A stretch of DNA of 42,383 nucleotides, from the NCBI RefSeq assembly GCF_000971235.1, contig NZ_BBMB01000016.1, positions 1 to 42,383 of the forward strand, given 5' to 3'. Origin of the DNA: Demequina subtropica (GTDB lineage: Bacteria; Actinomycetota; Actinomycetes; Actinomycetales; Demequinaceae). The position numbers were made by a program, and so were the translations under genes. This document shows positions 1-42,383 of the stretch, piece after piece. Each line of letters begins with the position of its first letter. Within the stretch, counting starts at the first letter, position 1. A model generated the notes under the pieces. That model was not told the origin of the DNA, ran no database searches, and saw only the letters and a program-made list of their open reading frames with translations.

Positions 1-1
1 G

Positions 2-2254
2 GACGATGCGGGCGACGGCGACGGCGACACCGGCACGGGCGACGGCGACACCGGCACGGGCGACGGCGACGGCGGCGCCTCCACCGAGCCCGCCGTCGGC
101 ACCCTCGTGTGGGGCGTCGACGCGGACTTCCGCTCCTACGTCACGGGCCCGATCGCGCAGGGCAGCATCACGGTGACGGGCGCGACCGCGAAGAACGGCC
201 TCTTCACCTTCACCCAGTCCGGCGGCAACGCCGACGCCGATGCACGCACCGGCACCGCAAGGTACGCAGGCTCCGTCACGTTCACGGGCCACCACGGGGC
301 GCTCGACCTCACCATCGCCGATCCGCGCGTCCGCTTCACCGCCACCGGCGCCGTGCTCACCGCGGCGGTCGACGGCACGCGGGTCGACTTCGCGACGCTC
401 GACCTCTCCGCCGCCACCCGCACCACGGCCGACGGCGCGACGCGCTGGACCGCAGCACCCGCGACCCTGACCTCGGCGGGCGCCAAGGCCTTCGACGGCA
501 TCTACGAGGCGGGCCGCACGCTCGACCCGGTGACGTTCACCGTCGGCGCCAACGGCGCCGTCGACGCCGGCTCCGGCTCGTCGTCCGGCGGGTCCTCGTC
601 CGGCGGCTCGAGCTCGGGCGGATCGTCGTCCGGCGGCAGCGGCACCAACACCAACACCGGCAACGGCAACGGCACCCACACCGACACGACGACCACCACC
701 CAGACGGTCGGCCGCCTCACGTGGGGCGTCGACTCCGGCTTCCGCTCGTACGTCACCGGCCCGATCGCCCAGGGCGCGATCTCCGTCACCGGCGCGAGCG
801 CGAAGGCCGGCACCTTCACGTTCCTCCAGTCCGGCGGCGACGCCGATGCGAACGCGCGCACCGGCACCGCCCGCTACGCCGGCGCGGTGACGTTCACCGG
901 CCATCACGGCGACCTCAACCTCACGGTGTCGAACCCGTACGTACGCCTGGGCTCCACGGGCGCGACGCTGAGCGTCGAGGTCGACGGCGTGCGCGTGGAC
1001 TTCGCGACCCTCCACCTCGCGGCGGGCACGCGCACCACGCTCGACGGCGCGATCCGTTGGGCGAACGTCCCCGCCACGCTCACGTCCGCGGGCGCCCGCG
1101 CCTTCGACGGCTTCTACGCCGCCGGACGCGCGCTCGACCCGGTGACGTTCACCGTCGGCACCGGCACCCCGGTCGCCAGCTCGACCACCACCGTGGTCGC
1201 GACCGCGACGACCGCATCGTCCGCCAGCGACGTGCCGTCGACGCCTCCGGCGACCACCGGCATCGTCCTCGACGACGCCACGCTGGCCGCCCTGCTGCGC
1301 GGCGAGGTGGTCACCCTCCGCGTGAGCGGCTTCGAGCCCGGCGAGACCGGCGTGCGCGTGGTCGTGTACTCGACGCCCACGATCCTCGCCGAGGACCTCA
1401 GCGCGGACGCGGACGGCGTGGTCGAGTGGACCGGGGCCCTCCCCGGCTCCCTCACGGGCACCCACACGCTCACCTTCCAGGGCACGGAGAGCTACGGGAT
1501 CGTGCTCGACATCCCCGCGCGCACCATGTGCCTGGTGGACGATGCGACGCTCGCGTGGGGCGTCAAGGACTCGTTCCGCGCGTACATCGAGGGCACCATC
1601 GCGAACGGCACCTGGGAGCTCGACGGCGTGACGCAGGACGGCGGCCAGTTCGTGTGGACGGCCGGCACCGGCGGCCTCGACACGGATCCGGTGAGCGGCG
1701 CTTTCGCGTTCGACGGCGCGGTGCTCTTCACCGGCCACGACGGGGCGCTCAGCACCACGCTCGCGAACCCCACCGTGGAGGTGAGCGACGGCGTCGCCAC
1801 GCTCGTCCTCGACGTGACGGGCGAGACCCAGGCGGGCGAGACGGTCGAGCAGACCGGCGTGCGCTTCGCGACGGTCGACACCGCCGCGGCCGAGGTCTCG
1901 ACGGACGGCGACACCGTCACGCTCACGGGCATCCCTGCGACGCTCACCGCGGACGGCGCCGCGGCCTTCGGCACCTATCCCGAGGGCTCGGAGCTCGATG
2001 CGGTGACGCTCACGGTGACCGGAGCCCAGGCCTGCGGCGGTGTCATCGCGGGCCTCCCGGCCCCCGAGCCCGCCGTCGAGGAGACTTCCGAGCCCCTGGC
2101 CGACGTCGCGGTCGAGGACCAGGCGGCGGCGGACGATGCGGCAGCGGAGCCCGCGGGCGACGCGCCGTCGCCGTGGTGGCCGTGGGCCGTCGGCGCGGGC
2201 GCGCTGCTGGCCGCCGGGCTGACGTTCGGGATCCGGAGGGCACGCCGGGCCTGA
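2..2254 (+). CDS. Surface haem-binding protein with three HtaA domains (5' partial)
   Basis: The reading frame is open from base 2, so the start and signal peptide lie outside the window. After a Gly-Asp/Thr linker with two exact 21-bp units (23-43, 44-64) come three HtaA domains, at about nt 104-550, 713-1165 and 1545-2035. Each opens with a W-G-V motif and carries the FR(S/A)Y tyrosine and FTGH histidine that bind haem in corynebacterial HtaA. Domains 1 and 2 are near copies and joined by a Gly/Ser stretch (nt 575-645) and a Thr/Asn stretch; domain 3 is divergent. An Ig-like segment (about 1260-1520) precedes domain 3. The C-terminus has a Trp/Pro-rich membrane segment and an arginine tail, so the protein is anchored at the cell surface. 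It converges on hmuOTUV and should hand haem to HmuT (inference). Confidence 0.9.
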   Translation, partial: DDAGDGDGDTGTGDGDTGTGDGDGGASTEPAVGTLVWGVDADFRSYVTGPIAQGSITVTGATAKNGLFTFTQSGGNADADARTGTARYAGSVTFTGHHGALDLTIADPRVRFTATGAVLTAAVDGTRVDFATLDLSAATRTTADGATRWTAAPATLTSAGAKAFDGIYEAGRTLDPVTFTVGANGAVDAGSGSSSGGSSSGGSSSGGSSSGGSGTNTNTGNGNGTHTDTTTTTQTVGRLTWGVDSGFRSYVTGPIAQGAISVTGASAKAGTFTFLQSGGDADANARTGTARYAGAVTFTGHHGDLNLTVSNPYVRLGSTGATLSVEVDGVRVDFATLHLAAGTRTTLDGAIRWANVPATLTSAGARAFDGFYAAGRALDPVTFTVGTGTPVASSTTTVVATATTASSASDVPSTPPATTGIVLDDATLAALLRGEVVTLRVSGFEPGETGVRVVVYSTPTILAEDLSADADGVVEWTGALPGSLTGTHTLTFQGTESYGIVLDIPARTMCLVDDATLAWGVKDSFRAYIEGTIANGTWELDGVTQDGGQFVWTAGTGGLDTDPVSGAFAFDGAVLFTGHDGALSTTLANPTVEVSDGVATLVLDVTGETQAGETVEQTGVRFATVDTAAAEVSTDGDTVTLTGIPATLTADGAAAFGTYPEGSELDAVTLTVTGAQACGGVIAGLPAPEPAVEETSEPLADVAVEDQAAADDAAAEPAGDAPSPWWPWAVGAGALLAAGLTFGIRRARRA

Positions 2255-2265
2255 CGCCCACCGCA

Positions 2266-2307
2266 CATGAGGAAGCCCCCGACCGCAAGGTCGGGGGCTT
2301 CCTCATG
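2266..2307. terminator. Bidirectional terminator between the HtaA gene and hmuV
   Basis: Perfect 19-bp inverted repeat (2266-2284 with 2289-2307) around a GCAA loop. It lies between two convergent stop codons and would end both transcripts. There is no long U tract, which is usual for GC-rich actinobacteria. Confidence 0.88.
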
Positions 2308-2327
2308 TCGCGAGCAGGTGAGCGTTG

Positions 2328-3098
2328 TCAGCGGCGCGGCAGCACCACCGGCAGACCGGTGTCCGGGTCCTCGATCACGCGCACGTCGAGCCCGTAGACG
2401 GGCTCGAGCAGCTCGGGCACCAGCACCTCGCGCGGAGAGCCGAGGCCCGCGAGCCGGGCGCGGTCGAGCACCGCGATGCGGTCGGCGTAGGCGGCCGCGA
2501 GCGAGAGGTCATGGACCACGACCACCACCGCGCTTCCACTCTTCGCGAGCGACCGTGCGAGCGCGAAGACCTCCTCCTGGTGACGGATGTCGAGCGCGGC
2601 GGTGGGCTCGTCGAGCATGACCACGGGCGTGCGCTGCGCGAGCACGCGCGCGAGCGAGACGCGCGCCCGCTCGCCGCCCGAGAGCGACGCGAACACGCGA
2701 TCGGCCAGGTGGGAGACGTCGGCGCGCGCGAGCGACTCGGCGATCACCGCATCGTCCTCGTCTGCCTCCGGCCGGGCTCGCCACGGGCTGCGGCCCATCG
2801 CGACCACCTCGCGCACCGTGAAGGAGAAGGCGACCTGATTGTCCTGCGTGAGCACCGCCCGCTCGCGCGCCAGGGCCCCCGGCTGCCACGCCGAGAGCGG
2901 CCGCCCGTCGAGCTCGACGAGCCCGCCCGCGAGCTCCCTCTCACCCGACAGCGCGGACAGGAGCGTCGACTTCCCCGCACCGTTCGGGCCCACGAGCGCC
3001 AGGAGCTCGCCGTGGCGCACGTCGAGGGTCACCCGGTCCGCCAGCACGGCGTCGCCGACGCGGACCGTGACCTCGCGCGCGTGGATCGCGGCCGTCAT
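2328..3098 (-). CDS. hmuV: Haem ABC transporter ATP-binding protein HmuV
   Basis: ATPase of the haem importer, 256 residues, cytoplasmic, paired with the permease HmuU. The Walker A loop GPNGAGKST is at residues 37-45, the LSGGE signature at 139-143, Walker B VVMLDE at 159-164 and the switch histidine at about 196. The chosen ATG at 3098 gives the normal size for the FecE/HmuV family and overlaps the hmuU stop codon by four bases (ATGA), so translation is probably coupled. It is the last gene of hmuO-hmuT-hmuU-hmuV. A siderophore importer would look similar; the adjoining haem oxygenase and HtaA protein favour haem. Confidence 0.93.
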   Translation of the reverse strand: MTAAIHAREVTVRVGDAVLADRVTLDVRHGELLALVGPNGAGKSTLLSALSGERELAGGLVELDGRPLSAWQPGALARERAVLTQDNQVAFSFTVREVVAMGRSPWRARPEADEDDAVIAESLARADVSHLADRVFASLSGGERARVSLARVLAQRTPVVMLDEPTAALDIRHQEEVFALARSLAKSGSAVVVVVHDLSLAAAYADRIAVLDRARLAGLGSPREVLVPELLEPVYGLDVRVIEDPDTGLPVVLPRR

Positions 3099-6124: not shown

Positions 6125-7927
6125 ATGACCGAGACCACGGCGAAGGTGGCCGAGTCGACCGATCCCTCGCCGCGCGCGCCCGAGCCCGCTCGGCATCCGC
6201 GCAGGCTGCGCGGTCGAGCGCCCCAGGCCTCCCCCGCATCGTCCCGCCGCCCGCCCGGGCTGCTCGAGCCCTCGTTCTCCGGCGTCGGCCTGGTGGTGGG
6301 CGCCTTCCTCATCTCGGTGTCCCTCGAGCCGTCGCTGCTGCCGCGCGTCCCCGTGGTGCAGGGGCTCGCGTCGGGGGTGTCGTTCATGGTGGGGTACGGC
6401 GCGGGAGCCGGCGCGCACGCGGTCTGGAACTACCTCCAGGTGCCCAACCTGCGCGGGCGCGCGCGGCGCATCGTCGCCTGGTCCCTGCTCGCCGTCATCT
6501 GGGTGAGCCTGTCGCTGTCGGTGTGGCGCTGGGTCGGATGGCAGAACGGCCAGAGGCGAGCATTCGGGATGGACGATCTCAACCCGACGGCCTGGCCCAT
6601 CGTCATCGGCACGGGCGTGGCCGTCGCCGCGGCGCTGCTGCTCCTCGCGCGTGCCCTCCGTGCGCTGTTCCGATGGGCGGACGGGGTGGCGGCGCGCTAC
6701 CTGCCTCCGCGGCTCGCGGTCGCCCTCGCGACCGCCGGGATGCTGGTGCTGCTGTGGCTGCTGGTCTCCGGCCTGCTGGTGCGCGGCCTCTTCCTGGTCG
6801 CCAACGAGGCGTTCTCGGTCCGCGACACGCACGACAAGGCCGGGACCACGCTCGTGACGTCGACGCTGCGCTCGGGCGGCGCGGACTCGCTGGTCGAATG
6901 GGACGAGCTGGGCCGCCAGGGCCGCAGCTTCGTCTCGGCGGGGGCCTCGGCCGAGCAGCTCGAGGCGTACGACGGCCAGCCCGCCATCGAGCCCATCCGC
7001 GTCTATGTGGGCCTCAGGTCGGCACCCACGCTCGAGGAGCGCGCGCAGCTGGTGCTCGAGGAGCTGGTGCGCACCGGAGCGTTCGATCGCCAGGTGCTGG
7101 TGCTCGCCACCACCACGGGCACAGGCTTCATCGACGCCAACGCGGCCGACTCGCTCGAGTTCCTCTACCACGGGGACACCGCGATCGCGGGGCTCCAGTA
7201 CTCGTACCTGCCGAGCTGGCTCTCGCTCCTCGCCGACCAGGAGGCCGTCGCGGATGCCTCGCTCGCGGTGTTCGACGCGGTGCACGACTACTGGGCCGAC
7301 CTCCCCGCATCCTCACGGCCGGAGCTGTACCTGTACGGGCTGTCGCTGGGATCCGCCGGCGTGGAGTCGATCCTCACCAGCCCGGACATCCTCAACGAGC
7401 CGATCGACGGCGCCCTCATGACCGGGCCCACCTTCCTCAACCTCCTGCACAACCAGCTCGAGCGCTCGCGCGACGACGGCTCGCCTGCGTGGCTGCCCGT
7501 GGTGGGCGAGGGACGCACCATCCGCTTCACGGGCGAGGACGATGCGTTGGCCCAGCCGAAGGGCGTCTGGGGCGACACGCGCGTGGTCTACCTCCAGCAC
7601 GGGTCCGACCCGGTGGTGTTCTTCTCCCCCGTCACGTTCTACCGCGAGCCCGAATGGCTGCAGGGCGACGCCCGTGCGCCGGACGTGTCCCCCAAGATGC
7701 GCTGGTTCCCCTTCATCACCGGCTGGCAGACGCTGCTCGACATGCCGGCCTCGGGCTCGGTCCCGGAGGGCTACGGCCACATGTACACCGCGAGCGCGAA
7801 CCTCCAAGCATGGGTGGGCATCACGCGCCCCGCCGACTGGACGGACGAGGACACGGCACAGCTGGGCGCCTATCTCGACGCGCGCCGCGCCGAGCAGCGC
7901 ACCCTCCTGGAGCAGCTGGGCCAGTAG
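6125..7927 (+). CDS. Membrane alpha/beta-hydrolase family protein (Abhydrolase_9 type)
   Basis: A 600-residue protein of the actinobacterial membrane-hydrolase family: a cytoplasmic basic/Pro-rich N-terminus, about four hydrophobic segments in the first third, then a large hydrolase domain. The nucleophile elbow is the GLSLGS motif in the second half, preceded by the TTTGTGFID segment typical of this family. The start is the ATG at 6125, which has AGGGGG eight bases upstream; the GTG at 6116 is too close to that site. The substrate is unknown, and a lipid or cell-wall ester role is a guess from the membrane location. Its terminator hairpin abuts the stop. Confidence 0.82.
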   Translation: MTETTAKVAESTDPSPRAPEPARHPRRLRGRAPQASPASSRRPPGLLEPSFSGVGLVVGAFLISVSLEPSLLPRVPVVQGLASGVSFMVGYGAGAGAHAVWNYLQVPNLRGRARRIVAWSLLAVIWVSLSLSVWRWVGWQNGQRRAFGMDDLNPTAWPIVIGTGVAVAAALLLLARALRALFRWADGVAARYLPPRLAVALATAGMLVLLWLLVSGLLVRGLFLVANEAFSVRDTHDKAGTTLVTSTLRSGGADSLVEWDELGRQGRSFVSAGASAEQLEAYDGQPAIEPIRVYVGLRSAPTLEERAQLVLEELVRTGAFDRQVLVLATTTGTGFIDANAADSLEFLYHGDTAIAGLQYSYLPSWLSLLADQEAVADASLAVFDAVHDYWADLPASSRPELYLYGLSLGSAGVESILTSPDILNEPIDGALMTGPTFLNLLHNQLERSRDDGSPAWLPVVGEGRTIRFTGEDDALAQPKGVWGDTRVVYLQHGSDPVVFFSPVTFYREPEWLQGDARAPDVSPKMRWFPFITGWQTLLDMPASGSVPEGYGHMYTASANLQAWVGITRPADWTDEDTAQLGAYLDARRAEQRTLLEQLGQ

Positions 7928-10127: not shown

Positions 10128-10211
10128 GAGGCCGACGCTACTACCGGATCGCCCGATTCGCACGGGAATCAGGCATGACGCGCATATGTCCGCAGAGGAC
10201 GATGCGGGCGC

Positions 10212-10643: not shown

Positions 10644-10725
10644 GAGGCGACGCTACAACGCGCCGGGCGACGCCCGCGAGGGGGAATCGCGCCCCGGCCG
10701 CGCGCATCGTCCCTGGACACAGATC

Positions 10726-15212: not shown

Positions 15213-15259
15213 GGACGATGCCGGGGCGGCGCATCGTCCCCGGTGCCCGTGCATCGTCC
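15213..15259. repeat. Three copies of the GGACGATGC motif ahead of valS
   Basis: Copies at 15213-15221 (forward), 15231-15239 (reverse) and 15251-15259 (reverse) fall within 47 bp between the AhpD-like gene and valS. The first two can pair as a hairpin (GGACGATGC with GCATCGTCC, 9-base loop). This is the densest cluster of the motif in the window. Confidence 0.75.
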
Positions 15260-22016: not shown

Positions 22017-22077
22017 GTGTGTCCTCCTGTCGAGCGTCCAGGTTGACCCTAACGCTCACCGCAGGCCGGACGATGCC

Positions 22078-22767: not shown

Positions 22768-22802
22768 GCGCGCATCGTCCCCGCGAGGCGTGGGAGACAG
22801 CA

Positions 22803-24181: not shown

Positions 24182-24311
24182 TACGTACTCCTGAATATGG
24201 GTTGAGGGGCCCGCGGGTGCTCCGTCGGCTCCCGCTGCTCGGGCAACCCTGCAATCGTACGCGCCGCACGCGCACAGGCCAATTCGAGGACGATGCGCGG
24301 GCCGCCCTCGC

Positions 24312-24355: not shown

Positions 24356-26956
24356 TCAGGAGAGCGGCTCCCACGGCCCCCACGGGGAGGCGCCGGGAGC
24401 CTGGCCCCTGGTCCACCACTTGGCACGCCAGAGCACGCCGTCCGCGTCGACCACCACGTCGCCGCGCGTGAAGATCCGCGTCGCGGTCCACACGGCGACT
24501 CCCGACGGCGCGGCGGCGACCTCCTGCCACGGACCGTAGACCGCGCCGGGCTCCTGAGCCCTGGTCCACCAGGTCGCGACCCAGACCGCGCCGTCGTGGC
24601 TCACCACGTCGCCCTCGCGGTAGGCGGTACCGGCGCTCCACGCGCCGGGCGCCGCGGCCGCCGCATCGTCGCCGACGACGATGCCGCGCCCGTTGGTCGC
24701 GATGTAGACGCGGCCGAAGACGTCGGGGTCGCCCTCGATGTCCGCGCCGATCCACCCCCACTGGTGCTCGTCGTCGTTGATGCGCTCCCACGTGCCGCCG
24801 CCGTCGACGGACCGCCACACGCCGCGCTCGCCGTCACGCGAGGCGGCGGTGTAGATCGCGGGCGAGGTCGCGCCGGGCGCCGCCTTGCCGAAGCCGATCG
24901 TGTCCGCCTCGTCGAAGCCGGCGACGCGCTTCCACGTGGCACCCGCGTCAGGCGACCGCCACAGCCCGTACGCGCCGTCCTCGTCGCCGCCCGCGAGCCA
25001 CACCTCGCCCGGCGCGCCGGGCATCGCCGCGAACCGCACGTTGCCCTCGGCGGGGAGCACGGAGCTCGCCGCGACGAATGTGGCGCCCGCATCTGTCGAC
25101 ACGTAGAACGTGCCCTCGGCGAAGCCGTAGAGCAAGCTCGCGTCGACGCGATCGGCCTCGACGCGGGCACCCGTCGGAAGCCCCACGCTCACCTCCCACG
25201 TCGCGCCGCCGTCGGCGGAGTAGCGTGCGTCCGCCCCCGCGGGCGCCCACACGAGCGCCTGACCGTCCGCGGCCACCGCGACCGTGCCGGGACCCGAGGC
25301 GCCATCCGCCGCCGGCGAGGCGGTCCAGGCCTCCCCCGCATCGTGCGTGACCGCGGTCACGTGCGCGCCCGAGCCGTCGGTGCCGGCCCTGGCGATCGTG
25401 CCGTCCGCGAGCCCCGCCGCGTCGACGCTGGTCGCGCCGCCGAAGTAAGGGTCCTGGAAGGTGTCGGTCACCGCGGTGATGTCGTCATGGACGAACCCGC
25501 CCAGGTCGAGCATCGCCGACACGAGGTCGACGTCGCCCGCGGGCGCGACGAGGTCCTGGATCGCCGTCTCCTCGATCCCGTCCGCGCCGGGCTCGATGTC
25601 GATGACGCCGCCGTCCTCGTCCCAGTCGGTGAGGTTCTCGCTGCGGTAGATGGTCGCGCCCGTGCCGTACATGAGCTCGTCCGGGTTGAAGGGGTCGATC
25701 TCCAGCGCGGAGATCATCCAGCCCAGCTTCGGGGTCGGCTCGGCCCACATCGTCGGCTCGCCCACCTGCTTGCCGAAGCGCAGCCACGGGACCTCGTCGA
25801 TCGACTGGTCGTAGCGGGTCACCAGCGTGCCGCCCGTGCTCCAGTCGTAGTCCCAGATCGGCGACCAGGTCTCGCCCCGGTCCGTGCTGCGGAAGATCAG
25901 CACGTCGGGCCACCACTGGATCTGCGACGCGACCATGAGCGTGTCGGGGTCGGTGCGGTCGACGGTGAGGCCGCCGAAGCCGAAGTCGACGCCGACGGGG
26001 CGCTGCGGCGGAGTGATGTCCGTCCAGGCGCCGTCGTCGAGGCCGTAGCGCCACACCTGTCCATCGGAGCCGTCGTACGGGCCGGAGGTGTTGCTCGTCG
26101 TGAGGTAGAGGTACCTCCCGTCCTCATCGATCACGCCGTGGTGGGGCAGGAACCCGGTGGGCGCGCCCTCGACGGGCGCCCAGGTCTCCCCCGCATCGTC
26201 CGAGCGGTAGAGGATGCTGTCGGTGTCCGCGACCGCCGTGAAGACCGTCCGTGTGGGCTCGCCCGGGGAGGACGATGCGGCGTCGAAGGCCGTCCACAGC
26301 ACGCCGAGGTTCTGCATGAGGTACGAGTTCGCGGACGAGGCGTCCGGCACGAAGTCGCCGGCGTTGGGGAAGGCCTCGACCTGCGAGAAGGTGGCACCCG
26401 CATCGGTCGACCGCCACAGACCCTCGCCCGACTCCGCGCCGTAGTAGAGGACGTCGTTGTCGTTCGGGTCGACCTGCAGCCTCTCACCGATGCCGCGGCC
26501 GGGCATGTTCCCGCCCACCTTGAAGGGCAGCGGCGTCGCCTCCCAGGTCTCGCCGTAGTCCGCGGAGCGGAGGATCGCTCCGTTGCTCTCGTCCCACTCG
26601 TTCGTGTACATGCCGACGGCGGCGTACACGCGCGCCGTGTCGACCGGATCGGTGCCGAGGCTCAGCACGCCCAGGCGGTTCCACTCGTCCCACCCCACGT
26701 GGTCGAGCAGGGGGACCCACGTGTCGGTCGCACGGTCGAGCCGGTAGGCGCCGCCGATGTCCGTGCGGGCGTAGACCAGGCCCTCCTCGGTCTGGTTGTA
26801 GATGATCCCGGGGACGTAGCCGCCGCCCGAGATCGCGACGTTGGACCAGGTGTAGCCGGGCCCGTCGGCGTCCGCGGCCTGGGCGGCGGGCACCAGCGCC
26901 GCGGTGAGGAGGGCGCCTGCGGTGGCGGCGCATGTCGCGGCCGCGGTGAATCTCAC
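24356..26956 (-). CDS. Secreted GH74 xyloglucanase with two C-terminal CBM5/12-like modules
   Basis: 866 residues. A Sec signal (VRFTAAATCAATAGALL...AAQA) precedes the mature ADADGPGYTW. Two seven-bladed propellers are marked by repeated Asp-box motifs (SADYGETW, STDAGATF, SDDAGETW, STDRGETW, SPDAGATW, SVDGGGTW). The ARTDIGGAYR segment near the N-terminus and GWMISALEIDPFNPDELMYGTG in the middle carry the acidic residues that act as catalysts in GH74. Two tandem modules end the protein (YREGDVVSHDG...WWT and FTRGDVVVDADG...WWT), of the chitin/cellulose-binding family 5/12 type. It cleaves the glucan backbone of xyloglucan. The GTG at 26956 has AAAGGAG at ideal spacing; the GTG at 26965 overlaps that site. 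Confidence 0.88.
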   Translation of the reverse strand: MRFTAAATCAATAGALLTAALVPAAQAADADGPGYTWSNVAISGGGYVPGIIYNQTEEGLVYARTDIGGAYRLDRATDTWVPLLDHVGWDEWNRLGVLSLGTDPVDTARVYAAVGMYTNEWDESNGAILRSADYGETWEATPLPFKVGGNMPGRGIGERLQVDPNDNDVLYYGAESGEGLWRSTDAGATFSQVEAFPNAGDFVPDASSANSYLMQNLGVLWTAFDAASSSPGEPTRTVFTAVADTDSILYRSDDAGETWAPVEGAPTGFLPHHGVIDEDGRYLYLTTSNTSGPYDGSDGQVWRYGLDDGAWTDITPPQRPVGVDFGFGGLTVDRTDPDTLMVASQIQWWPDVLIFRSTDRGETWSPIWDYDWSTGGTLVTRYDQSIDEVPWLRFGKQVGEPTMWAEPTPKLGWMISALEIDPFNPDELMYGTGATIYRSENLTDWDEDGGVIDIEPGADGIEETAIQDLVAPAGDVDLVSAMLDLGGFVHDDITAVTDTFQDPYFGGATSVDAAGLADGTIARAGTDGSGAHVTAVTHDAGEAWTASPAADGASGPGTVAVAADGQALVWAPAGADARYSADGGATWEVSVGLPTGARVEADRVDASLLYGFAEGTFYVSTDAGATFVAASSVLPAEGNVRFAAMPGAPGEVWLAGGDEDGAYGLWRSPDAGATWKRVAGFDEADTIGFGKAAPGATSPAIYTAASRDGERGVWRSVDGGGTWERINDDEHQWGWIGADIEGDPDVFGRVYIATNGRGIVVGDDAAAAAPGAWSAGTAYREGDVVSHDGAVWVATWWTRAQEPGAVYGPWQEVAAAPSGVAVWTATRIFTRGDVVVDADGVLWRAKWWTRGQAPGASPWGPWEPLS

Positions 26957-27032: not shown

Positions 27033-27131
27033 GAGGGAGCGCCCTGCGAAAGGGAGGAAAGGGAAGACTTTCGGGACGATGCGGACCACGTCGCCCGATG
27101 CTCTTGACGGTCCCGCCCAGGAGGCATAGAC

Positions 27132-28226: not shown

Positions 28227-28811
28227 GTGACCGAGCCGCGCATCGTCCCTGCCCACCTTGTCCCCCGCGCCGACCTCGACGCCGTGATGCGCGAGGGCGG
28301 CGACGCGAACTCGTGCCGCTGCCAGTGGTTCAAGCTCTCCCCGGGCGAGTGGAAGGCGACCGGTCGCGAGGCGCGGGACGATGCGCTCGTCGCCCAGGCG
28401 GGCTGCGGGCGCCCGGACGCCGCGACCACCTCCGGGCTGGTCGCGTACGTGGACGGCGAGCCGGCCGGCTGGGTCGCGGTCGAGCCGCGCACCGCGTACC
28501 CGCGGCTGCGGACGGCGCGCATCCCGTGGTCCGGGCGTGACGAGGACAAGGACGATGCGGGGGTCTGGGCGGTCACGTGCTTCGTGGTGCGGAAGGGGTA
28601 CCGCGGACGCGGGCTCGCGACGGCTCTCGCTGGTGCGGCGGTGGCTCATGCCCGGTCCTCCGGCGCTGCGGCGGTCGAGGGCTACCCGCGGGTCGAGGGC
28701 GGCGACGCGTCCGCGCTTTTCGTGGGGACGCGGTCGCTCTTCGAGGCCGCCGGGCTGCGCGAGGTGTCGCGCCCGACGCCGGGCCGCGCCGTGATGCGGG
28801 CGGAGCTGTGA
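28227..28811 (+). CDS. GNAT-family N-acetyltransferase
   Basis: 194 residues. The acetyl-CoA-binding core is VTCFVVRKGYRGRGLATALA, with the R-G-x-G-x-A loop, at about residues 115-134. The N-terminus has a Cys-rich NSCRCQWFKL segment found in a subgroup of actinobacterial GNATs. The substrate is unknown. GTG start at 28227, preceded by TAGCCT at six bases; probably leaderless. Its stop codon overlaps the start of the DUF1304 gene (TGATG), so the two are cotranslated. It contains two of the GGACGATGC copies (28377, 28550), read as Asp-Ala codon pairs, and a reverse copy near the start (28240). Confidence 0.88.
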   Translation: MTEPRIVPAHLVPRADLDAVMREGGDANSCRCQWFKLSPGEWKATGREARDDALVAQAGCGRPDAATTSGLVAYVDGEPAGWVAVEPRTAYPRLRTARIPWSGRDEDKDDAGVWAVTCFVVRKGYRGRGLATALAGAAVAHARSSGAAAVEGYPRVEGGDASALFVGTRSLFEAAGLREVSRPTPGRAVMRAEL

Positions 28812-29197
28812 TGCTCGTCGCGGCGTGCGTGCTCGCCGGCCTCGCGGCCCTGGTGCACGTGTACATCTTCTGGCTCGAGTCGGTCGCGTGGATGCGCCCG
28901 GCGACGCGGCGGGTGTTCGGCATCGAGAGCGAGGACGATGCGCGCGCTACCCGGGCGCTCGCCTTCAACCAGGGCTTCTACAACCTGTTCCTCGCGCTCG
29001 TGACGGCCGTGGGCATCGTGCTGCTGCTCGTCGACGAGGGCGCTCCCGGCGCCGCGCTGATCTACGCCGGTTGCGGGTCGATGGTGCTCGCGGCGCTGGT
29101 GCTGGTGGCGGGCTCGCGGGCGTACGGCTCCGCGGCCGCGAAGCAGGGGACGCTGCCGCTGCTCGCTCTCGTGGCGCTGACCGCGGCGCTGCTGTGA
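28811..29197 (+). CDS. DUF1304 membrane protein
   Basis: 128 residues with four predicted membrane helices. The family signature is visible: HVYIFWLESVAW in helix 1, then RRVFGI, then NQGFYNLFLAL in helix 2. Function unknown. Its ATG overlaps the stop of the GNAT gene by one base, so expression should be coupled; whether the enzyme modifies a membrane compound handled by this protein is open. Six bases separate its stop from the convergent CDF gene. Confidence 0.86.
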   Translation: MLVAACVLAGLAALVHVYIFWLESVAWMRPATRRVFGIESEDDARATRALAFNQGFYNLFLALVTAVGIVLLLVDEGAPGAALIYAGCGSMVLAALVLVAGSRAYGSAAAKQGTLPLLALVALTAALL

Positions 29198-30955: not shown

Positions 30956-33814
30956 CTACAGCGCCGCCCACGCCTCGCGACGCACCATGACGCGTTCGAG
31001 CGCGCCCAGGAACCGCCCGACCGCCTCCGCGTCGATGGTGAGCGGCGGCTTGATCTTGAGGACGTTCTTGTGGTCCCCCGTGGGCTGCACGATCACCCCC
31101 TCGAGCAGCAGCGCCTCGCAGATCTCGCGCGCCGCCGCAGGGTCGGGCGCATCGGGCCCGCCCGCCACGACCTCGAGGCCGAGGTACAGCCCCATCCCGT
31201 GGACCTCCCCCAACGCGTCGAACCGCGAGCACAGCGCACGCATGCCATCCGCGAGCAGCGCCCCGACCACGCGTGCGTTCTCCTGCAGCCCGTCCTCGTC
31301 GAGCACGCGCAGCACGGTCGAGCCGACCACGCAGCTCACCGGGCTGCCTCCCGCGGAGGAGAAGAACGACCCCTCGACCGCGAACGCGTCCGCGATCTCA
31401 CGCGTGGTGATCACCGCGCCTAGCGGGTGGCCGTTCCCCATCGCCTTCGCCACCGCGATGACATCCGGCACCACGCCCTGCTGCTCGCAGCCCCAGAAGT
31501 GCGCACCCAAGCGGCCGTAGCTCACCTGGACCTCGTCCGACACGACCAGGCCGCCGCGCGCCCGCACGGCCGCCGCGAGGCCCGCGAGGTAGCCGTCGGG
31601 CAGCAGGATCCCGCCGCCGTTGCCGAAGATCGGCTCGGCGACCAGCCCCGCGAGCGCCGCGCCCGCCTCGTCCAGCGCGGACAGCCTCGCCAGCGCATCG
31701 TCGAGGTAGCGCCCGGCCTCGGCACCACGATGCCGCCCCCGGTAGGTGTTGGGCGCGTCGAGCAGATGCACCCAGCCGGGCCGCGAGCCCAGCGCGCCGG
31801 GGTTGTCGCCCAGCGACGTCGAGATCGCATCGGCCCCCACGGTCCAGCCGTGATACGCCTCGGTGAGCGCGAGGACGTCCTCCCGCCCGGTCGCGGCGCG
31901 CGCGATGCGGATCGCGAGGTCGACCGCCTCCGAGCCGCTGTTGACGAGCAGCACCGTGTCCAGACCCTCCGGCGCCCGCGCGGCGAGCTCCTCGGAGAGC
32001 TCGGCGACCGCCGCGTAGTGGAAGCGCGAGTTGGTGTTGAGCCGGCGCAGCTGGCGCGACACCGCGTCCGCGAGGCGCGGCTCGCCGTGCCCGAGGATCG
32101 CGACGTTGTTCACCATGTCGAGGTAGCCGCGGCCGTCGGTGTCGAGAAGGTGGTGGCGCCAGCCGCGCTCGATCCGCGGCGGCACGTCGTAGTAGTGCTC
32201 CTGCACGGTCGCGAACGACCCGTCGCGCGCCTCCAGGAGGTCGCCCGCGGCGCGACGGGACGATGCTCCGATCGCCCGGCCGAGCAACGGCGTCGGGTTC
32301 GGGCACAACTCGAGCCACGCGTCGGCGTGCTCTGGCGTCACGGTCTCCGGGGGAAGCAGCCCCGGGACCACGCACAGCTGTACATGGAACGGCCCGTCGG
32401 CCCGCGCGAGCAGGGTGCCCGCGACGATCTCCTGGTCGGCGTCGATCACGGTCGCCACGCGGTCGAGATGCACCGTGAGCCCCGACTCCAGCTCGAGCGC
32501 AAGGCCGAGGCGCGACCACCGTGCCGCGTAGCCCGGTCCGGGGCTCCGGATCTCGGTGCCCGCCGGCACCAGCACGTCGATGCCGAGCGCCACGGACCGG
32601 GGCACGCGCGCGGTGGCCGCCTCCGGGGTCGCCCGGCGCTCGCCGTGGCGCGTGATGGCCGCTCCTTCGCCGGCCGTGGCGGTGAGCACGTCGCGCTCCC
32701 ACGAGCGCCACATCCATGCACCCCCGTCCGCGGCGTCGCCGAGCACCGAAAGGTCCACCTCCGGCGCATGCGCGAGCCCCGTCAGCATCGGCGTGAGGCC
32801 CGTGAACGTGACCGGCGCCGTCCTTCCGAGCCGCTGCATGAGCAGCAGTTCGGATTCGTCGAACCCGAGCGACAGCGCGCGCTCGAGCATGCGATCCTCG
32901 AGCGGGCGACGGACGCGCGCGTAGTCGTTCCCGGGGTCCTCCGCGAGGACCCGCTCCCCCGCCGCCGCGAGCACCACGGCGCGAGAGACCACGAGCGGCC
33001 ACACGGCGGCGATCTCGGACCTGGTGAGCGGCATCGCGCGGTCGAAGGCCGCGAGCGCCTCGAGCGCGTCGCTCACCGCGGGGCCGTCGTGCTGCAGCAG
33101 CCCGCACATGACCACGGCCGCCTCGGCAGCCAGCCACCCCCGGCCCAGGTCGCCGAAGTCGATCACGCCGGAGATCGCGCCGTCAGGACCGACCACCACG
33201 TTGTCCGCCGTGAGGTCGCCATGGATCGCCTGCACCCGGAGGGCGTGCCGCACATGGAGAAGCTGCTGCTGGGCCTCGCGCAGGATCACGCCGAGCTCGC
33301 CGGCACGGGCCTCACCGAGGTGCGGAGCCGCCTCCTCGAGCACGCGCGCGGCCTCGCGCAGGTCCCAGTCACCGCCGTCCGCGAGTCCGGGATGGTCGAA
33401 CGATGCGAGCGCCGCGGCCAACCCGCCCGCCGTGGCGCCCAGCGCCGCAGGCAGATCGGCCGGAAGCCGCGCTCCCCGCGCGGGCTCACCCTCGAGGAAG
33501 TCGAGCACGCGCACGTGGACGCCCCCGTCGAGCATGACCATGGCCTCGCCGGCCGTGGTGGGATGCACGCGCGGCACGGCGGCCCCCGCCTCGGCGAGAT
33601 GCGCGAGCGCGGCGCCCTGCGCCTCGAGCTCCTCGCGCGCGATCCCCGGATGCGAGGCCTTGAGCAGCCTGCGCGTCCCGTCCGCGAGGACGAGCAGCAC
33701 GTTGCGGTCCTCGTTGGACCCGAGGTCGCGGGCGTCGGCGATGGAGAGGCCCCACTCCTGCGCGGCGAGCGCGCGCAGGGCGGCGAGCGTGAGATCGGCG
33801 GTCACGAGGCGCAT
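30956..33814 (-). CDS. Fusion: APH-like kinase, M23-like domain and class III aminotransferase
   Basis: 952 residues in three parts. Residues 1-330 form an aminoglycoside-phosphotransferase-type kinase: catalytic loop HGDLTADN at 198-205 and metal-binding DFGD at 219-222. Residues about 400-490 resemble a lysostaphin/M23 fold (VALGIDVLVPAGTEIRSPGPG), but no clear zinc-ligand set is visible. Residues about 540-952 are a class III aminotransferase with the PLP lysine at about 790 (AVAKAMGNGHPLG), the SGSEAVDLA phosphate contact and the DEVQVSYGRLG aspartate. Related fusions are thought to phosphorylate an amino alcohol and then eliminate phosphate, or to transaminate the product; the substrate here is unknown. 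ATG 33814 follows GGGGTGAG; a GTG at 33847 is possible. Confidence 0.85.
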   Translation of the reverse strand: MRLVTADLTLAALRALAAQEWGLSIADARDLGSNEDRNVLLVLADGTRRLLKASHPGIAREELEAQGAALAHLAEAGAAVPRVHPTTAGEAMVMLDGGVHVRVLDFLEGEPARGARLPADLPAALGATAGGLAAALASFDHPGLADGGDWDLREAARVLEEAAPHLGEARAGELGVILREAQQQLLHVRHALRVQAIHGDLTADNVVVGPDGAISGVIDFGDLGRGWLAAEAAVVMCGLLQHDGPAVSDALEALAAFDRAMPLTRSEIAAVWPLVVSRAVVLAAAGERVLAEDPGNDYARVRRPLEDRMLERALSLGFDESELLLMQRLGRTAPVTFTGLTPMLTGLAHAPEVDLSVLGDAADGGAWMWRSWERDVLTATAGEGAAITRHGERRATPEAATARVPRSVALGIDVLVPAGTEIRSPGPGYAARWSRLGLALELESGLTVHLDRVATVIDADQEIVAGTLLARADGPFHVQLCVVPGLLPPETVTPEHADAWLELCPNPTPLLGRAIGASSRRAAGDLLEARDGSFATVQEHYYDVPPRIERGWRHHLLDTDGRGYLDMVNNVAILGHGEPRLADAVSRQLRRLNTNSRFHYAAVAELSEELAARAPEGLDTVLLVNSGSEAVDLAIRIARAATGREDVLALTEAYHGWTVGADAISTSLGDNPGALGSRPGWVHLLDAPNTYRGRHRGAEAGRYLDDALARLSALDEAGAALAGLVAEPIFGNGGGILLPDGYLAGLAAAVRARGGLVVSDEVQVSYGRLGAHFWGCEQQGVVPDVIAVAKAMGNGHPLGAVITTREIADAFAVEGSFFSSAGGSPVSCVVGSTVLRVLDEDGLQENARVVGALLADGMRALCSRFDALGEVHGMGLYLGLEVVAGGPDAPDPAAAREICEALLLEGVIVQPTGDHKNVLKIKPPLTIDAEAVGRFLGALERVMVRREAWAAL

Positions 33815-36722: not shown

Positions 36723-37370
36723 ATGGCATCCGAGATCGGCGTCCTCGCCCGCATGCTCGAGGACATCCGCACGGTCCAGAGACGCGATCCCGCCGCACCC
36801 GCGTGGTGGGTCATCGCGGGCTCCTACCAGGGGCTCCACGCCGTCTGGTACCACCGGGTGGCGCACTGGCTGTGGCGCCACCGCGCACGCTCGTACGCGC
36901 GGCTCATGTCGCAGTACGCGCGCCGCGTCACGGGGATCGAGATCCATCCGGGCGCGACGCTCGGGAGGCGCGTGTTCATCGACCACGGCATGGGCGTGGT
37001 GATCGGCGAGACCGCGGTGGTGGGCAACGACGTCCTGCTGTTCAACGGCATCAACCTGGGCGGCACCACCATGAGCCCCGGCAAGCGCCACCCCACCATC
37101 GGCGACCGCGTCGTCATCGGCGCGGGTGCGAAGGTCCTCGGCCCGCTCCGCGTCGGCCCGGACGCCCGCATCGGCGCCAACGCCGTGGTGGTCAAGGACG
37201 TCCCCGACGGCGCGACGGCGGTCGGCATCCCCGCCGTCATCCGCAACCACCCCGGAGCGACGGAGGCCTCGACCGCGGCATCGTCCGTCGACTCGGGCGA
37301 CTCGCACCGTCACCCCGACCCCGATGCGATGCCGGAGCCGGTGCGCGAGCCGGCGATGTACTACATCTAG
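36723..37370 (+). CDS. cysE: Serine O-acetyltransferase
   Basis: Acetylates serine with acetyl-CoA, the first step of cysteine synthesis. 215 residues: a helical N-terminus, then a left-handed beta helix of hexapeptide repeats ([56 protein letters not shown]). The catalytic histidines are in the [11 protein letters not shown] and GKRHPTIGD segments. The protein ends PAMYYI; a C-terminal isoleucine is the residue that inserts into the CysK active site to form the cysteine synthase complex. GGAAGG precedes the ATG. Confidence 0.95.
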
Positions 37371-37380
37371 ACCGGGACCT

Positions 37381-37412: not shown

Positions 37413-37459
37413 TCGCGTCCCTAGACTGGAGTCAAACCCCCTCACCACAAGGAGTGTCG

Positions 37460-38392: not shown

Positions 38393-38405
38393 CCCCACGC
38401 ACGAT

Positions 38406-38448: not shown

Positions 38449-38459
38449 TGTGCCGGGTC

Positions 38460-38960: not shown

Positions 38961-39104
38961 GTCTCCTCCTCGGTTGTCTCTTCGCGGAGCCGCAGGAGCG
39001 CGGCGCCGTCCAGTCGGGCCAACCGACACGGGCCGTGCCGCATTCCCCGGCACCGGAGCGCGCGGACGACGGAATGGCGCGTATGCCTGATACGTTCCGG
39101 AGCC

Positions 39105-39614
39105 ATGGAGCACATCAGCCTCGACCCTCACCGCAAGGCCGCCGCCGAGTCCTGCCCCGCCCCCGTCTTCTCCGACGCCCCGGGTGACGACGAGCTCGCG
39201 CTCGCGCTCGCGCGCACCCGACGCGTCGCGATCGTCGGCGCGTCGCCCAACCCGTCGCGCACGAGCTACCAGATCGCGGTGTGGCTCATGGAGCACACGC
39301 CGTACGAGCTCTACCTGGTCAACCCCGCCGCCGCCGGCGAGGAGATCCTGGGCCACGGCTTCTACGACTCGCTGAGCGACCTCCCGGTGAAGGTCGACAT
39401 GGTCGACGTGTTCCGCCGGTCCGAGCACACCCCCGCGATCGCCTCCGAGGCCGTCGCCGCGAACGCCAAGGCGGTGTGGCTCCAGCTGGGCATCAGCCAC
39501 CCGGAAGCGATGGCGAGCGCGCGCGCCGCCGGGCTGCTCGCCGTCCAGAACCGCTGCATCAAGGTCGAGTACCGCCGCCTCGCGGACCGGATCACCTCGT
39601 TCCGCGCGCTCTGA
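39105..39614 (+). CDS. CoA-binding (YccU-like) protein
   Basis: 169 residues. A Rossmann-type CoA-binding domain (CoA_binding_2) spans about 30-155: VAIVGASPNPSRTSYQIAVWLM with the nucleotide loop, YELYLVNPAAAGEEILG, VDMVDVFRRSEHTPAIA and VWLQLGISHPEA. The role of these stand-alone proteins is not established. TACGTT ends eight bases before the ATG; GGAG is too close to act as a normal ribosome site, so the transcript may be leaderless or nearly so. Confidence 0.86.
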   Translation: MEHISLDPHRKAAAESCPAPVFSDAPGDDELALALARTRRVAIVGASPNPSRTSYQIAVWLMEHTPYELYLVNPAAAGEEILGHGFYDSLSDLPVKVDMVDVFRRSEHTPAIASEAVAANAKAVWLQLGISHPEAMASARAAGLLAVQNRCIKVEYRRLADRITSFRAL

Positions 39615-39677
39615 CGCGTTCCCGGCGCGCCGCGCCGCCGCCGCGACGCGCATCGTCCCGGGTGACACGATGTCGAT

Positions 39678-40946
39678 ATGTCCGTCACGCCCGGGTACAG
39701 GCTGGTCTCGCTCACACCGGACCGCGCGAGCGAGATGCTCGCCGTCAACACGTGGGCCTTCACGGGCGACATGCGGCCCGAGGACCTCGAGGCGTACGCG
39801 TCCGAGATCCCCTTCTCGCGGACACGGGCGTTCGAGATCGAGGATCCGTCGCACGGCGACGTGGGCACGCTCGCGGGCGTGGCCGCGTCCTACACGTACC
39901 GGATGCGTGTGCCGGGCGCGTCGCTCGTGCCCGTCGCGGGGCTCACCTGGGTGGGCGTGCATCCCGGCCATCGGCGACGCGGCCTGCTGCGCGCGATGAT
40001 GGGCGATCACCTCGCGGATGCTCGCGCGCGCGGTGAGGTCGCGTCCGCGCTGTACGCGGCGGAGACCGGGATCTATCAGCGTTTCGGCTACGGCCTCGCG
40101 GCGCGCCAGGTCGACGTGCGGGCGCCGCGCGGCGCATCGCTCCGCCCGGTGGCGGGATCGGACGCGCTCCGCGTGCGCATCGAGGACGCGAGCCTCGAGC
40201 GGCATGGCGGCGCGATCGCCACGATCCAGCGCCGCCTTGACCGGCCGGGCACGCCGACCCTCGACCACGAGGAGGCGCTGCGTGCGCGTTTCGCCGACCC
40301 CCTCGCGCACCGACGCGGCAGCGAGCGCATGCGCGTGGCCCTGGTCGAGGAGGCCGGCGGCGAGCCGGTCGCGTACGCGTTCTTCCGCCGCGAGGGCAGG
40401 TGGGACGACGACGGCAACCCCGGCGGCACCGTGCACACCTGGTCCTTCGGCGCCGCCGGGCCCGCGGCCGCGCATCGCCTGTGGTCCGTGCTGCTCGACC
40501 TCGACCTCATGGGCACCGTGAAGGCCGGTCCGCTCGCGCTCGACGACCCCCTGCTGTGGCTGCTCGAGGACCCGCGCTCGGCCCGCGCGCGGGTGCGGGA
40601 CAACATCTGGCTGCGGATCGTGGACGTGCCCGCGGCCCTCACGGCGCGCGAGTACCTGTGCCCCGTCGACGCCGTGATCCAGGTGACCGATCCGCTGTTC
40701 CACGACAACGCGGGCCCGTGGCGCATCACGTCCCGCGACGGCGAGGGCCACGTCGAGGCCGCCCCGGGCGAGGAGCCCGACCTGGTGATCGGCGTGCAGG
40801 AGCTCTCGGCCGCGTACCTGGGAGGCGTGAGCCTCGCGGCGCTCGCGGGCGCCGGGCTGATCGAGGAGCGCACGCCGGGCGCGGTGCACGCGCTCGCGGC
40901 GGCCTTCGAGTCGACGTCCGCGCCGGTGTGCAACCTGTTCTTCTGA
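39678..40946 (+). CDS. Eis-like GNAT acetyltransferase, copy 1
   Basis: 422 residues with the three-part build of Eis: an N-terminal GNAT with the acetyl-CoA loop VGVHPGHRRRGLLRAMM (about 92-108), a second GNAT-like domain, and a C-terminal SCP2-like domain (about 310-422). Tyr133 lies in IYQRFGYG, which holds the general-acid tyrosine in Eis, and the protein ends in Phe, whose carboxylate is part of the Eis active site. Mycobacterial Eis acetylates several amines of aminoglycosides and other targets; the target here is unknown. A GCATCGTCC motif lies 20 bases before the ATG. Confidence 0.86.
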   Translation: MSVTPGYRLVSLTPDRASEMLAVNTWAFTGDMRPEDLEAYASEIPFSRTRAFEIEDPSHGDVGTLAGVAASYTYRMRVPGASLVPVAGLTWVGVHPGHRRRGLLRAMMGDHLADARARGEVASALYAAETGIYQRFGYGLAARQVDVRAPRGASLRPVAGSDALRVRIEDASLERHGGAIATIQRRLDRPGTPTLDHEEALRARFADPLAHRRGSERMRVALVEEAGGEPVAYAFFRREGRWDDDGNPGGTVHTWSFGAAGPAAAHRLWSVLLDLDLMGTVKAGPLALDDPLLWLLEDPRSARARVRDNIWLRIVDVPAALTAREYLCPVDAVIQVTDPLFHDNAGPWRITSRDGEGHVEAAPGEEPDLVIGVQELSAAYLGGVSLAALAGAGLIEERTPGAVHALAAAFESTSAPVCNLFF

Positions 40947-41049
40947 TACTCGCGCCTGCGCGTCCCCACCCGTCTGCCAGGTCGTATTCCGTCGGGTGAG
41001 CAAGCCCACAGGATTTGGGCCAGCGCAGGGGCCATGTCACGGTGGACGG

Positions 41050-42309
41050 ATGAAGAAGGCAGAGGGATACCGACCGATCTCGATCTCCGACGAGCGTCTC
41101 GACGAGTTCTTCGACGTGGTCCAGTGGGCCTTCGTCGGCGAGTGGCTGCGCGAGGACCGGCAGGACTACGTGGACGCCCTCCCGGTCGAGCGCGCCCGCG
41201 CGCTCGAGGTGACCGATGCGCGGCGCGGCCGGGTGAGCGAGATCGCCGCCGTGCACGCGAGCTTCGGCACCGAGATGGTCGTGCCTGGTGGGCGCACGGT
41301 GCCCACGGCGGGCCTGTCGTGGCTAGGTGTCCACCCCGCGCATCGTCGCCGAGGGCTCATGACCCGCATGATCCACGACCACTTCGAGCGCTCGCTCGCG
41401 CGCGGTGAGGCGGTCTCCGTGCTGTACGCGATGGAGGCGCCCATCTATGCGCGGTTCGGCTACGGCATGGGCTCGCAGACCGTGAAGGCCGAGATCCCGC
41501 GCGGCGCGAGGATGTGGCCCGTCGATGGCGCCGACGAGCTCACAGTGCGGCTCGAACGCGCGTCCTTCGACGCGCACGACGAGCTGGTCGCCGACCTGCA
41601 GGCGCGCCTCGACCGCCCCGGCACCGTCATCAACGCGGTCGGGTCGGGGCGCAACGCGCGGTTCACCGACCCCGTGGGCAACCGCCGTGGCATGGAGAAG
41701 TGGCGCCTCGCGATCGTCGAGGACGCGGGCGATCCCGTGGCGTACGCGTTCTTCCGCCGCCACGCACGCTCGTCGGTGGGGATCCACGACGGCGTGTGCC
41801 AGGTCCGCGAGCACGGCTCGCTGACCCCCGCGGCGTCCCAGCGACTGTGGCAGACCCTCACGGACTTCGACCTGGTCGAGACGACCATGACGGAGAACCT
41901 CGCGACGGACGATCCTCTGCTGCACCAGCTCAAGGACCCTCGCGGCGTGCGCTCCAAGGTCATCGACAACCTGTGGGTGCGCCTGCTCGACGTCCCCACC
42001 GCGCTCGAGGCGCGCGACTACCTCCACGACTGCGACGTGGTGGTCGAGCTCGCCGACAAGCATGTGCCCGCGAACTCCGGCGCGTGGCGGATCCGCATCG
42101 CCCGCGGCGAGGCGAGCGTCACGCGCACGGACGATGCGCCGGACCTCACGATGGACATCCGCCACCTGTCGCAGTGCTACCTGGGCGGCACGTCGCTCGA
42201 GGCGCTCGTGCGTGCGGGTTTGGTTCGCGAGCACACGCCCGGTCAGGCACGCGACCTCGCGACCGCGATGCTCTCCCCCGTCGCGCCGCTGGCGAACTGG
42301 GACTTCTAG
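41050..42309 (+). CDS. Eis-like GNAT acetyltransferase, copy 2
   Basis: 419 residues, same direction and same domain order as the preceding gene: acetyl-CoA loop LGVHPAHRRRGLMTRM at about 92-107, Tyr133 in IYARFGYG, and a terminal Phe (ANWDF). The middle domain is more diverged. The two genes are a tandem duplication with 103 bp between them. CACGGT ends six bases before the ATG, which could be a leaderless -10; a frame opening at 40996 is less likely. Bases 42310-42383 hold only an imperfect GC-rich stem. Confidence 0.86.
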   Translation: MKKAEGYRPISISDERLDEFFDVVQWAFVGEWLREDRQDYVDALPVERARALEVTDARRGRVSEIAAVHASFGTEMVVPGGRTVPTAGLSWLGVHPAHRRRGLMTRMIHDHFERSLARGEAVSVLYAMEAPIYARFGYGMGSQTVKAEIPRGARMWPVDGADELTVRLERASFDAHDELVADLQARLDRPGTVINAVGSGRNARFTDPVGNRRGMEKWRLAIVEDAGDPVAYAFFRRHARSSVGIHDGVCQVREHGSLTPAASQRLWQTLTDFDLVETTMTENLATDDPLLHQLKDPRGVRSKVIDNLWVRLLDVPTALEARDYLHDCDVVVELADKHVPANSGAWRIRIARGEASVTRTDDAPDLTMDIRHLSQCYLGGTSLEALVRAGLVREHTPGQARDLATAMLSPVAPLANWDF

Positions 42310-42383
42310 GGTCCCGGCCTCGCGCGCGGCGCCTCGTGCACCGCGCCTCGCGCGCTAAGAGGTGCTGAGCGCCCGAATCACGC

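What the first reader, a model, noticed from the sequence alone, without database searches (positions are those of the whole stretch)
1..42383. A 9-mer, GGACGATGC, is massively over-represented on both strands and between genes
By hand I counted 26 exact copies. Forward: 1, 1537, 2131, 7537, 10197, 15213, 22068, 24288, 26270, 27074, 28377, 28550, 28933, 32268, 42129. Reverse (GCATCGTCC): 1214, 2749, 6236, 10704, 15231, 15251, 22772, 26193, 28240, 37278, 39650. At about 72 % GC and independent bases I expect roughly 0.5. About ten are intergenic although intergenic DNA is about a tenth of the window, so Asp-Asp-Ala codon use cannot explain it. Inside genes the rare GAT codon appears where GAC is otherwise preferred. 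Orientation is mixed (15:11), unlike a polar FtsK or Chi signal. It could be a nucleoid, recombination, uptake or methylation signal.
Basis: partly seen in the sequence, partly recalled or inferred. Interest (0 to 1): 0.78.

Follow-up and report, generated by a model that had tools for sequence, protein, structure and literature searches.

The report
Self-DNA uptake code in Demequina
A nine-letter DNA word is repeated about 1,400 times on both strands of a Demequina (high-GC Gram-positive) genome and differs by one to three letters between groups of sister species, so it is likely a "self" tag that tells these bacteria whose loose DNA to take up, a device so far described in only two families of Gram-negative bacteria.

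Summary
The window holds 27 GGACGATGC (shuffles: mean 1.33); the whole 3.08-Mb genome holds 1,392 (708:684; reversed-word control 18). With copies masked, order 3-6 models predict 16-27 in a 506-kb sample that holds 235. The genome is a Demequina. Across 44 genus genomes the word has lineage-specific variants: GGACGATGC in 16 (929-1,864 copies), GGCCGATGC in 16 (718-2,018) plus 4 weaker, GCCCGACGC in 2 (1,101; 1,206), none of the three in 6. They follow a metE tree of 28 genomes. No replication-strand bias is seen and intergenic DNA is enriched; prepilins occur in 44 of 44 genomes and ComEC in 43. This is the signature of DNA uptake sequences, stated in 2025 to be known only from Neisseriaceae and Pasteurellaceae. 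Uptake and the receptor are untested; a type IV pilin is the predicted reader, but no single pilin fits all tag-rich genomes. Verdict: likely a third, independently evolved uptake code.

The parts
1..9 (+). GGACGATGC copy (first bases of the contig)
1214..1222 (-). GGACGATGC copy
1260..1268 (-).
1537..1545 (+). GGACGATGC copy
2131..2139 (+). GGACGATGC copy
2749..2757 (-). GGACGATGC copy
6236..6244 (-). GGACGATGC copy
7537..7545 (+). GGACGATGC copy inside the alpha/beta-hydrolase gene
10197..10205 (+). GGACGATGC copy, intergenic
10704..10712 (-). GGACGATGC copy, intergenic
15213..15221 (+). GGACGATGC copy, left arm of an inverted pair upstream of the tRNA-synthetase domain
   Evidence: the pair folds at -28.5 kcal/mol, z -3.1
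15231..15239 (-). GGACGATGC copy, right arm of the inverted pair
15251..15259 (-). GGACGATGC copy, third of the cluster
22068..22076 (+). GGACGATGC copy, likely upstream of clpP
   Evidence: start of clpP inferred
22772..22780 (-). GGACGATGC copy, intergenic between trigger factor and clpP
24288..24296 (+). GGACGATGC copy, likely upstream of the trigger-factor start
   Evidence: start inferred
26193..26201 (-). GGACGATGC copy inside the BNR-repeat gene
26270..26278 (+). GGACGATGC copy inside the BNR-repeat gene
27074..27082 (+). GGACGATGC copy, intergenic
28240..28248 (-). GGACGATGC copy
28376..28384 (+). GGACGATGC copy
28550..28558 (+). GGACGATGC copy
28933..28941 (+). GGACGATGC copy, intergenic
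32258..32266 (+). GGACGATGC copy (reader gave 32268)
37278..37286 (-). GGACGATGC copy
39650..39658 (-). GGACGATGC copy
42129..42137 (+). GGACGATGC copy inside the acetyltransferase gene

Best explanation
GGACGATGC, present 1,392 times in this Demequina genome, is predicted to be a DNA uptake sequence: a self-tag that a type IV pilus would recognise on free DNA so that the cell preferentially imports DNA of its own kind. Inferred mechanism: a type IV pilin on the retractable pilus (in most genomes looked at, a cysteine-bearing one is on hand) binds the tag, which has a strict inner part and looser outer bases; the pilus pulls the DNA to ComEA; ComEC brings one strand in; homologous recombination then favours DNA that carries tags, which over time spreads and maintains copies wherever they do little harm. 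Shown here: copy number, two-strand symmetry, intergenic excess, near-match tolerance pattern, lineage-specific variants, and the genes for pilus, ComEA and ComEC. Not shown: competence, tag-dependent uptake, and which pilin (or other protein) reads the tag.
For: Number and density like known systems: 1,392 in 3.08 Mb; Frye 2013 gives about 1,900 10-mers in N. meningitidis/gonorrhoeae (section read). 708:684 strands and no replication-strand bias by GC skew: 102 copies on the G-rich strand, 118 on the other, in 23 stretches (computed). Excess not from codons (180 against 35.4) and 2.2-fold denser between genes. After masking exact copies, six single-change neighbours at positions 1-3 are enriched 2.3- to 6-fold (for example C at 1: 99 against 34.6; C at 2: 55 against 17.5; C at 3: 79 against 24.6), while at positions 4-9 none with more than 2 copies exceeds 1.8-fold: a tolerant edge with a strict core, as expected of a binding site kept up by uptake. 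Dialects in 44 genus genomes: 16 GGAC, 20 GGCC (4 of them weak), 2 GCCCGACGC, 6 none, following the MetE tree with 4 changes where the least possible is 3 and shuffles average 12.1 (0 of 200 as low; 28 genomes). At aligned positions, 14 relatives of the same dialect keep the word in 78 of 159 site comparisons (background 50.5); 9 relatives of the GGCC dialect keep it in 1 of 38 (background 6.3) and read GGCCGATGC exactly there in 5 of 38, against 2 of 159 for the same-dialect relatives. Type IV pilus operon in the genome; pilB, pilT and pilC homologues in 21 of 21 genomes compared; prepilins in 44 of 44 genus genomes; ComEC in 43 of 44; ComEA beside ComEC in this genome. Inverted neighbours within 60 bp are commoner than direct ones, 16 against 6 site-counts.
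Against: No uptake or competence data: one search found one paper holding both 'Demequina' and 'natural transformation', once each (listing only). No reader is pinned down. The metE-linked orphan pilin is not at the metE locus of this genome although the tag is abundant. Cysteine-bearing pilins do not fit everywhere: the operon pilins fetched from the GGCC-rich genomes G013 and G031 have no cysteine, and their second profile matches showed no pilin motif to my scan. At least two kinds of minor-pilin cassette occur in both dialects. The one pilin position that split the dialects 12:12 among orphan pilins held in only 2 of 5 orphan-lacking GGCC species, 1 of 4 not seen before. Six genomes have prepilins and (five of six) ComEC but none of the three words. 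Three of 14 same-dialect relatives keep sites no better than background (G004 1 of 7, G063 0 of 1, G016 3 of 10), and the counts reuse the same few sites across genomes. One GGAC genome (G021) also holds 664 GGCCGATGC. DprA was not searched. A chromosomal DNA-binding protein could in principle give abundant, lineage-specific words.
Confidence: 0.8

Rival explanations
1. A chromosome-organising (nucleoid-associated or segregation) protein binds GGACGATGC, and its specificity has drifted between Demequina lineages.
For: Abundant, spread over the stretches examined, both strands, intergenic excess; such a site could also change with its protein.
Against: Known polar signals of this kind (KOPS, recalled) are strand-biased; none is seen here (102:118). 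Near-match tolerance at the edge and the lack of all three words in 6 of 44 genomes of the genus fit a dispensable process better than chromosome organisation.
Confidence: 0.08
2. A Chi-like recombination hotspot recognised by a helicase-nuclease.
For: Chi is a short, abundant, non-palindromic word (recalled).
Against: Chi is polar with replication (recalled); here forward and reverse are 708:684 and 102:118 relative to GC skew. Dialects differing by one to three letters inside one genus would need repeated change of a core repair enzyme.
Confidence: 0.04
3. A target of a DNA methyltransferase or restriction-like system, over-represented as a self mark.
Against: Restriction targets are usually avoided, and a 9-base contiguous asymmetric target is longer than usual (both recalled). 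Loose positions 1-3 are unlike a methylase site. No methylation data were available and methylase genes were not searched.
Confidence: 0.04
4. A HIP1-like abundant word of unknown cause (mutation or repair bias), with no uptake role.
For: Cyanobacterial HIP1 shows that abundant words can exist without a known role (recalled).
Against: The word is not a palindrome, and related species carry altered forms of it, at 5 of 38 aligned site comparisons in the same place.
Confidence: 0.04

Closest known systems
DNA uptake sequence (DUS) dialects of Neisseriaceae, read by the minor pilin ComP
   Same: Short non-palindromic word in the thousands, several dialects differing by one or a few bases around a constant inner core and following phylogeny (PMC3630211, abstract and section 'DUS dialects' read); type IV pilus and ComEC present; an orphan pilin outside the pilus operon in many Demequina.
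Uptake signal sequence (USS) of Pasteurellaceae, reader predicted to be the minor pilin PpdA/ComN
   Same: 9-base core, hundreds to thousands of copies, two types, inverted pairs (PMC12616744, abstract and introduction read). One orientation is favoured in one reading frame of genes (71 of 180 here), as reported for known uptake sequences (PMC2346458, abstract only).
   Different: No GCGG core in the 9-mer; no AT-rich downstream modules (flanks show a following G and weak G+C preferences).
HIP1 of cyanobacteria (recalled)
   Same: Extremely abundant short word spread over the chromosome.
   Different: HIP1 is a palindrome; GGACGATGC is not.
Natural transformation of Micrococcus luteus (Flp pilus; titles and starts of abstracts in the listing only)
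   Same: Competence in the same phylum.
   Different: There the pilus is of the Flp kind; here the operon has the PilB/PilC/PilM type IV pilus families, and a repeated tag is present.

Membership tests
DUS/USS-type uptake sequence (as a functional kind) | Word of about 9-12 bases in hundreds to thousands of copies, far above expectation | tested here: met
   1,392 copies; 235 against 16-27 expected in 506 kb
DUS/USS-type uptake sequence (as a functional kind) | Both orientations, no replication polarity | tested here: met
   708:684; 102:118 relative to GC skew in 23 stretches; not mapped about oriC
DUS/USS-type uptake sequence (as a functional kind) | Dialects in relatives with a constant inner core, following phylogeny | tested here: met
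   GGACGATGC / GGCCGATGC / GCCCGACGC in 44 genomes; 4 changes on the MetE tree of 28 genomes. The part constant across all three is G..CGA.GC
DUS/USS-type uptake sequence (as a functional kind) | Frequent inverted pairs, often serving as terminators | tested here: inconclusive
   Inverted neighbours within 60 bp 16 against 6 direct (site-counts); three of the nine inverted pairs listed there were folded, z -3.1, -6.7, -1.5; the window pair lies upstream of a gene, terminator role not tested
DUS/USS-type uptake sequence (as a functional kind) | Type IV pilus and ComEA/ComEC uptake machinery encoded | tested here: met
   pilus operon; prepilins 44/44; ComEC 43/44; ComEA in this genome
DUS/USS-type uptake sequence (as a functional kind) | DNA carrying the word is taken up or transforms preferentially | not testable with these tools
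   needs an uptake or transformation assay
DUS/USS-type uptake sequence (as a functional kind) | Sequence-specific pilin receptor | not testable with these tools
   candidates only: operon pilin L064:14339-14800 and metE-linked orphan pilins; no binding test
DUS/USS-type uptake sequence (as a functional kind) | DprA present | not tested
Neisseriaceae DUS proper | Inner core CTG | tested here: not met
   neither strand of the three 9-mers holds CTG (the sequence shows it)
Pasteurellaceae USS proper | Inner core GCGG | tested here: not met
   neither strand of the three 9-mers holds GCGG; in GGACGATGC the base after the word is G in 170 of 234 sites
Chi / KOPS | Orientation bias with replication | tested here: not met
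   (GC skew as proxy)
HIP1 | Palindromic word | tested here: not met
   GGACGATGC differs from its reverse complement GCATCGTCC
ComP (Neisseria minor pilin) | Pilin fold with disulfide near the C-terminus | tested here: inconclusive

The most novel reading that the evidence does not exclude
Demequina carries a third, independently evolved self-DNA uptake code, the first in a Gram-positive (monoderm) phylum, with three dialects inside one genus and a pilin reader; and because a related word ([A/C]CGATGCCGT) is also piled up in another family of the same order, the code may be older and wider than Demequina.
Probability: 0.7. Interest if true: 0.92.

Novelty: new variant of a known kind. Interest (0 to 1): 0.86.

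Why it matters
Uptake sequences are stated to be known only from Neisseriaceae and Pasteurellaceae (Helsem 2025, introduction), both diderm proteobacteria. A third origin in a monoderm actinobacterial genus would show that tagging one's own DNA does not need an outer membrane, would give 44 genomes with dialect gain, switch and apparent loss on which to test how a tag and its reader coevolve, and would mark Demequina as probably naturally transformable; one search found no paper on natural transformation in the genus.
Full report
What was claimed and what is there. A search finds 27; dinucleotide shuffles average 1.33 and never exceed 4. In the whole genome in which the window lies (3,075,577 bases, 23 contigs) there are 708 forward and 684 reverse copies, against 6 and 12 of the word read backwards. 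Twenty-two other genomes of the same order hold 36-203, so even against an order baseline the excess is large.

It is a word, not a by-product. In 506,383 bases of this genome (window plus 25 stretches), 235 copies are present. When all copies are masked and Markov models refitted, orders 3 to 6 expect 16.2, 22.5, 26.8 and 24.0. Reshuffling synonymous codons within genes leaves 35.4 (sd 3.8) of 180 genic copies. Copies are 2.2 times denser between called genes than in them (0.92 against 0.42 per kb; the gene caller is crude).

Anatomy. Beyond the nine bases only a following G is clearly preferred (170 of 234); the 12-mer AGGGACGATGCG is the most enriched of its length (21 against 0.3). With exact copies masked, six one-letter variants at positions 1-3 are over-represented 2.3- to 6-fold; at positions 4-9 no variant with more than 2 copies exceeds 1.8-fold, so CGATGC is the strict part in this dialect. 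Copies lie on both strands; relative to the G-rich strand of each of 23 stretches they are 102 to 118 (computed). Neighbouring copies within 60 bp are more often inverted than direct (16 against 6 site-counts; at a distance 4 and 6); the window's pair at 15213/15231 folds as a hairpin (z -3.1), but it lies upstream of a tRNA-synthetase domain, so I do not call it a terminator.

The organism. Homologues of a pilin from this genome are named Demequina gelatinilytica on a contig of 199,302 bases, the length of G019's contig 26, and Demequina sediminis on one of 2,705,399, the length of G026's contig 1; a second pilin gives D. soli (G016), activiva (G015), iriomotensis (G002), zhanjiangensis (G027) and sediminicola (G008) by the same match.

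Dialects. GGACGATGC is abundant (929-1,864) in 16 of 44 genus genomes and numbers 49-275 in the other 28. A stretch-based word search in G035 gave GCCGATGC with the same core; GGCCGATGC is abundant (718-2,018) in 16 genomes and weaker in 4 more (GGAC genomes hold 134-664 of it too). Stretches of G009 gave GCCCGACGCT, and GCCCGACGC numbers 1,206 in G009 and 1,101 in G011 against 31-370 in the other 42, with reversed-word controls of 40-220. Six genomes (G001, G003, G005, G012, G027, G032) have none of the three. A few genomes are incomplete (G060 50%, G005 85%, G028 88%). On a MetE tree of 28 genomes (13 GGAC, 11 GGCC, 2 GCCCGACGC, 2 none) the four states need 4 changes (minimum 3; shuffles mean 12.1; 0 of 200 as low); the GGAC state appears in the main clade and again in G004/G063, whose neighbours are GCCCGACGC or none. 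The deep root is weakly supported.

Change in place. Aligning the window and the pilus region with relatives (20 and 19 loci), same-dialect relatives (14 genomes) keep the word in 78 of 159 aligned site comparisons where the background of all aligned 9-mers predicts 50.5; GGCC-dialect relatives (9) keep it in 1 of 38 (6.3 predicted), and 5 of the 38 read GGCCGATGC exactly there, against 2 of 159; the GCCCGACGC genome aligned at 2 sites and kept neither. Three same-dialect genomes (G004, G016, G063) are at or below background. The comparisons are not independent, since the same sites recur, and most same-dialect genomes are also the closer ones.

Which protein reads the tag is open. The orphan is missing here; the operon pilins fetched from the GGCC-rich genomes G013 and G031 lack cysteines; minor-pilin cassettes of unlike kinds occur in both dialects; and the one residue that split the dialects among orphans failed in other genomes. 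ComEA or another surface protein remains possible.

Reading. This combination, a short non-palindromic word in a thousand or more copies, symmetric on strands, tolerated in genes and denser between them, with a strict core and phylogeny-following dialects, in a genus with a conserved type IV pilus and ComEA/ComEC, is what marks the uptake sequences of Neisseriaceae (PMC3630211: abstract and one section read) and Pasteurellaceae (PMC12616744: abstract and introduction read). [quoted passage not shown] The Demequina words share neither family's core, so this would be a separate origin.

Breadth. In another family of the order (f20, genus g22) CGATGCCGT numbers 560-1,120 in 8 of 10 genomes (the other two 338 and 83), against 7-577 in the genomes outside g22 and Demequina, among 396 searched (three GGCC Demequina reach 556-867). 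Stretches of G057 give ACGGCATCG (44 against 4.6) as the top 9-mer, beside an unrelated repeat. This is a lead, not a result.

Noticed in passing
G057 and other genomes of family f20, genus g22 (loci L232-L239): A related word, (A/C)CGATGCCGT, is enriched (ACGGCATCG 44 against 4.6 in 151 kb; CGATGCCGT 560-1,120 per genome in 8 of 10 genomes): possibly a second uptake-like word in another family. An unrelated repeat around ATTCCGCAAGGGGAC also stands out there.
   Followed up: partly
T4P operons L119-L138 and L064/L065: The minor-pilin part of the pilus operon exists in unlike versions that are mixed across both tag dialects, while pilB and pilT stay conserved: looks like exchange of pilin cassettes between species.
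   Followed up: partly
metE-linked loci L069-L088 (without L082): An orphan type IV pilin with two invariant cysteines, so far named only from Demequina, lies near metE in 19 of 20 fetched loci but not at the metE locus of the window's genome (L220).
   Followed up: yes
G009, G026, G060: ComEC is split over two frames in these assemblies; sequencing error or gene decay not distinguished.
   Followed up: no
L027:749-1549 (-): The ComEA-like protein begins with tandem EDVRASSP-type repeats before its membrane segment.
   Followed up: no
G000:C13:200677-200943 and G000:C23:78140-78436: Two further places match the C-terminal two thirds of the orphan-pilin profile without the pilin N-terminus; similar weak matches occur in many relatives.
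   Followed up: no
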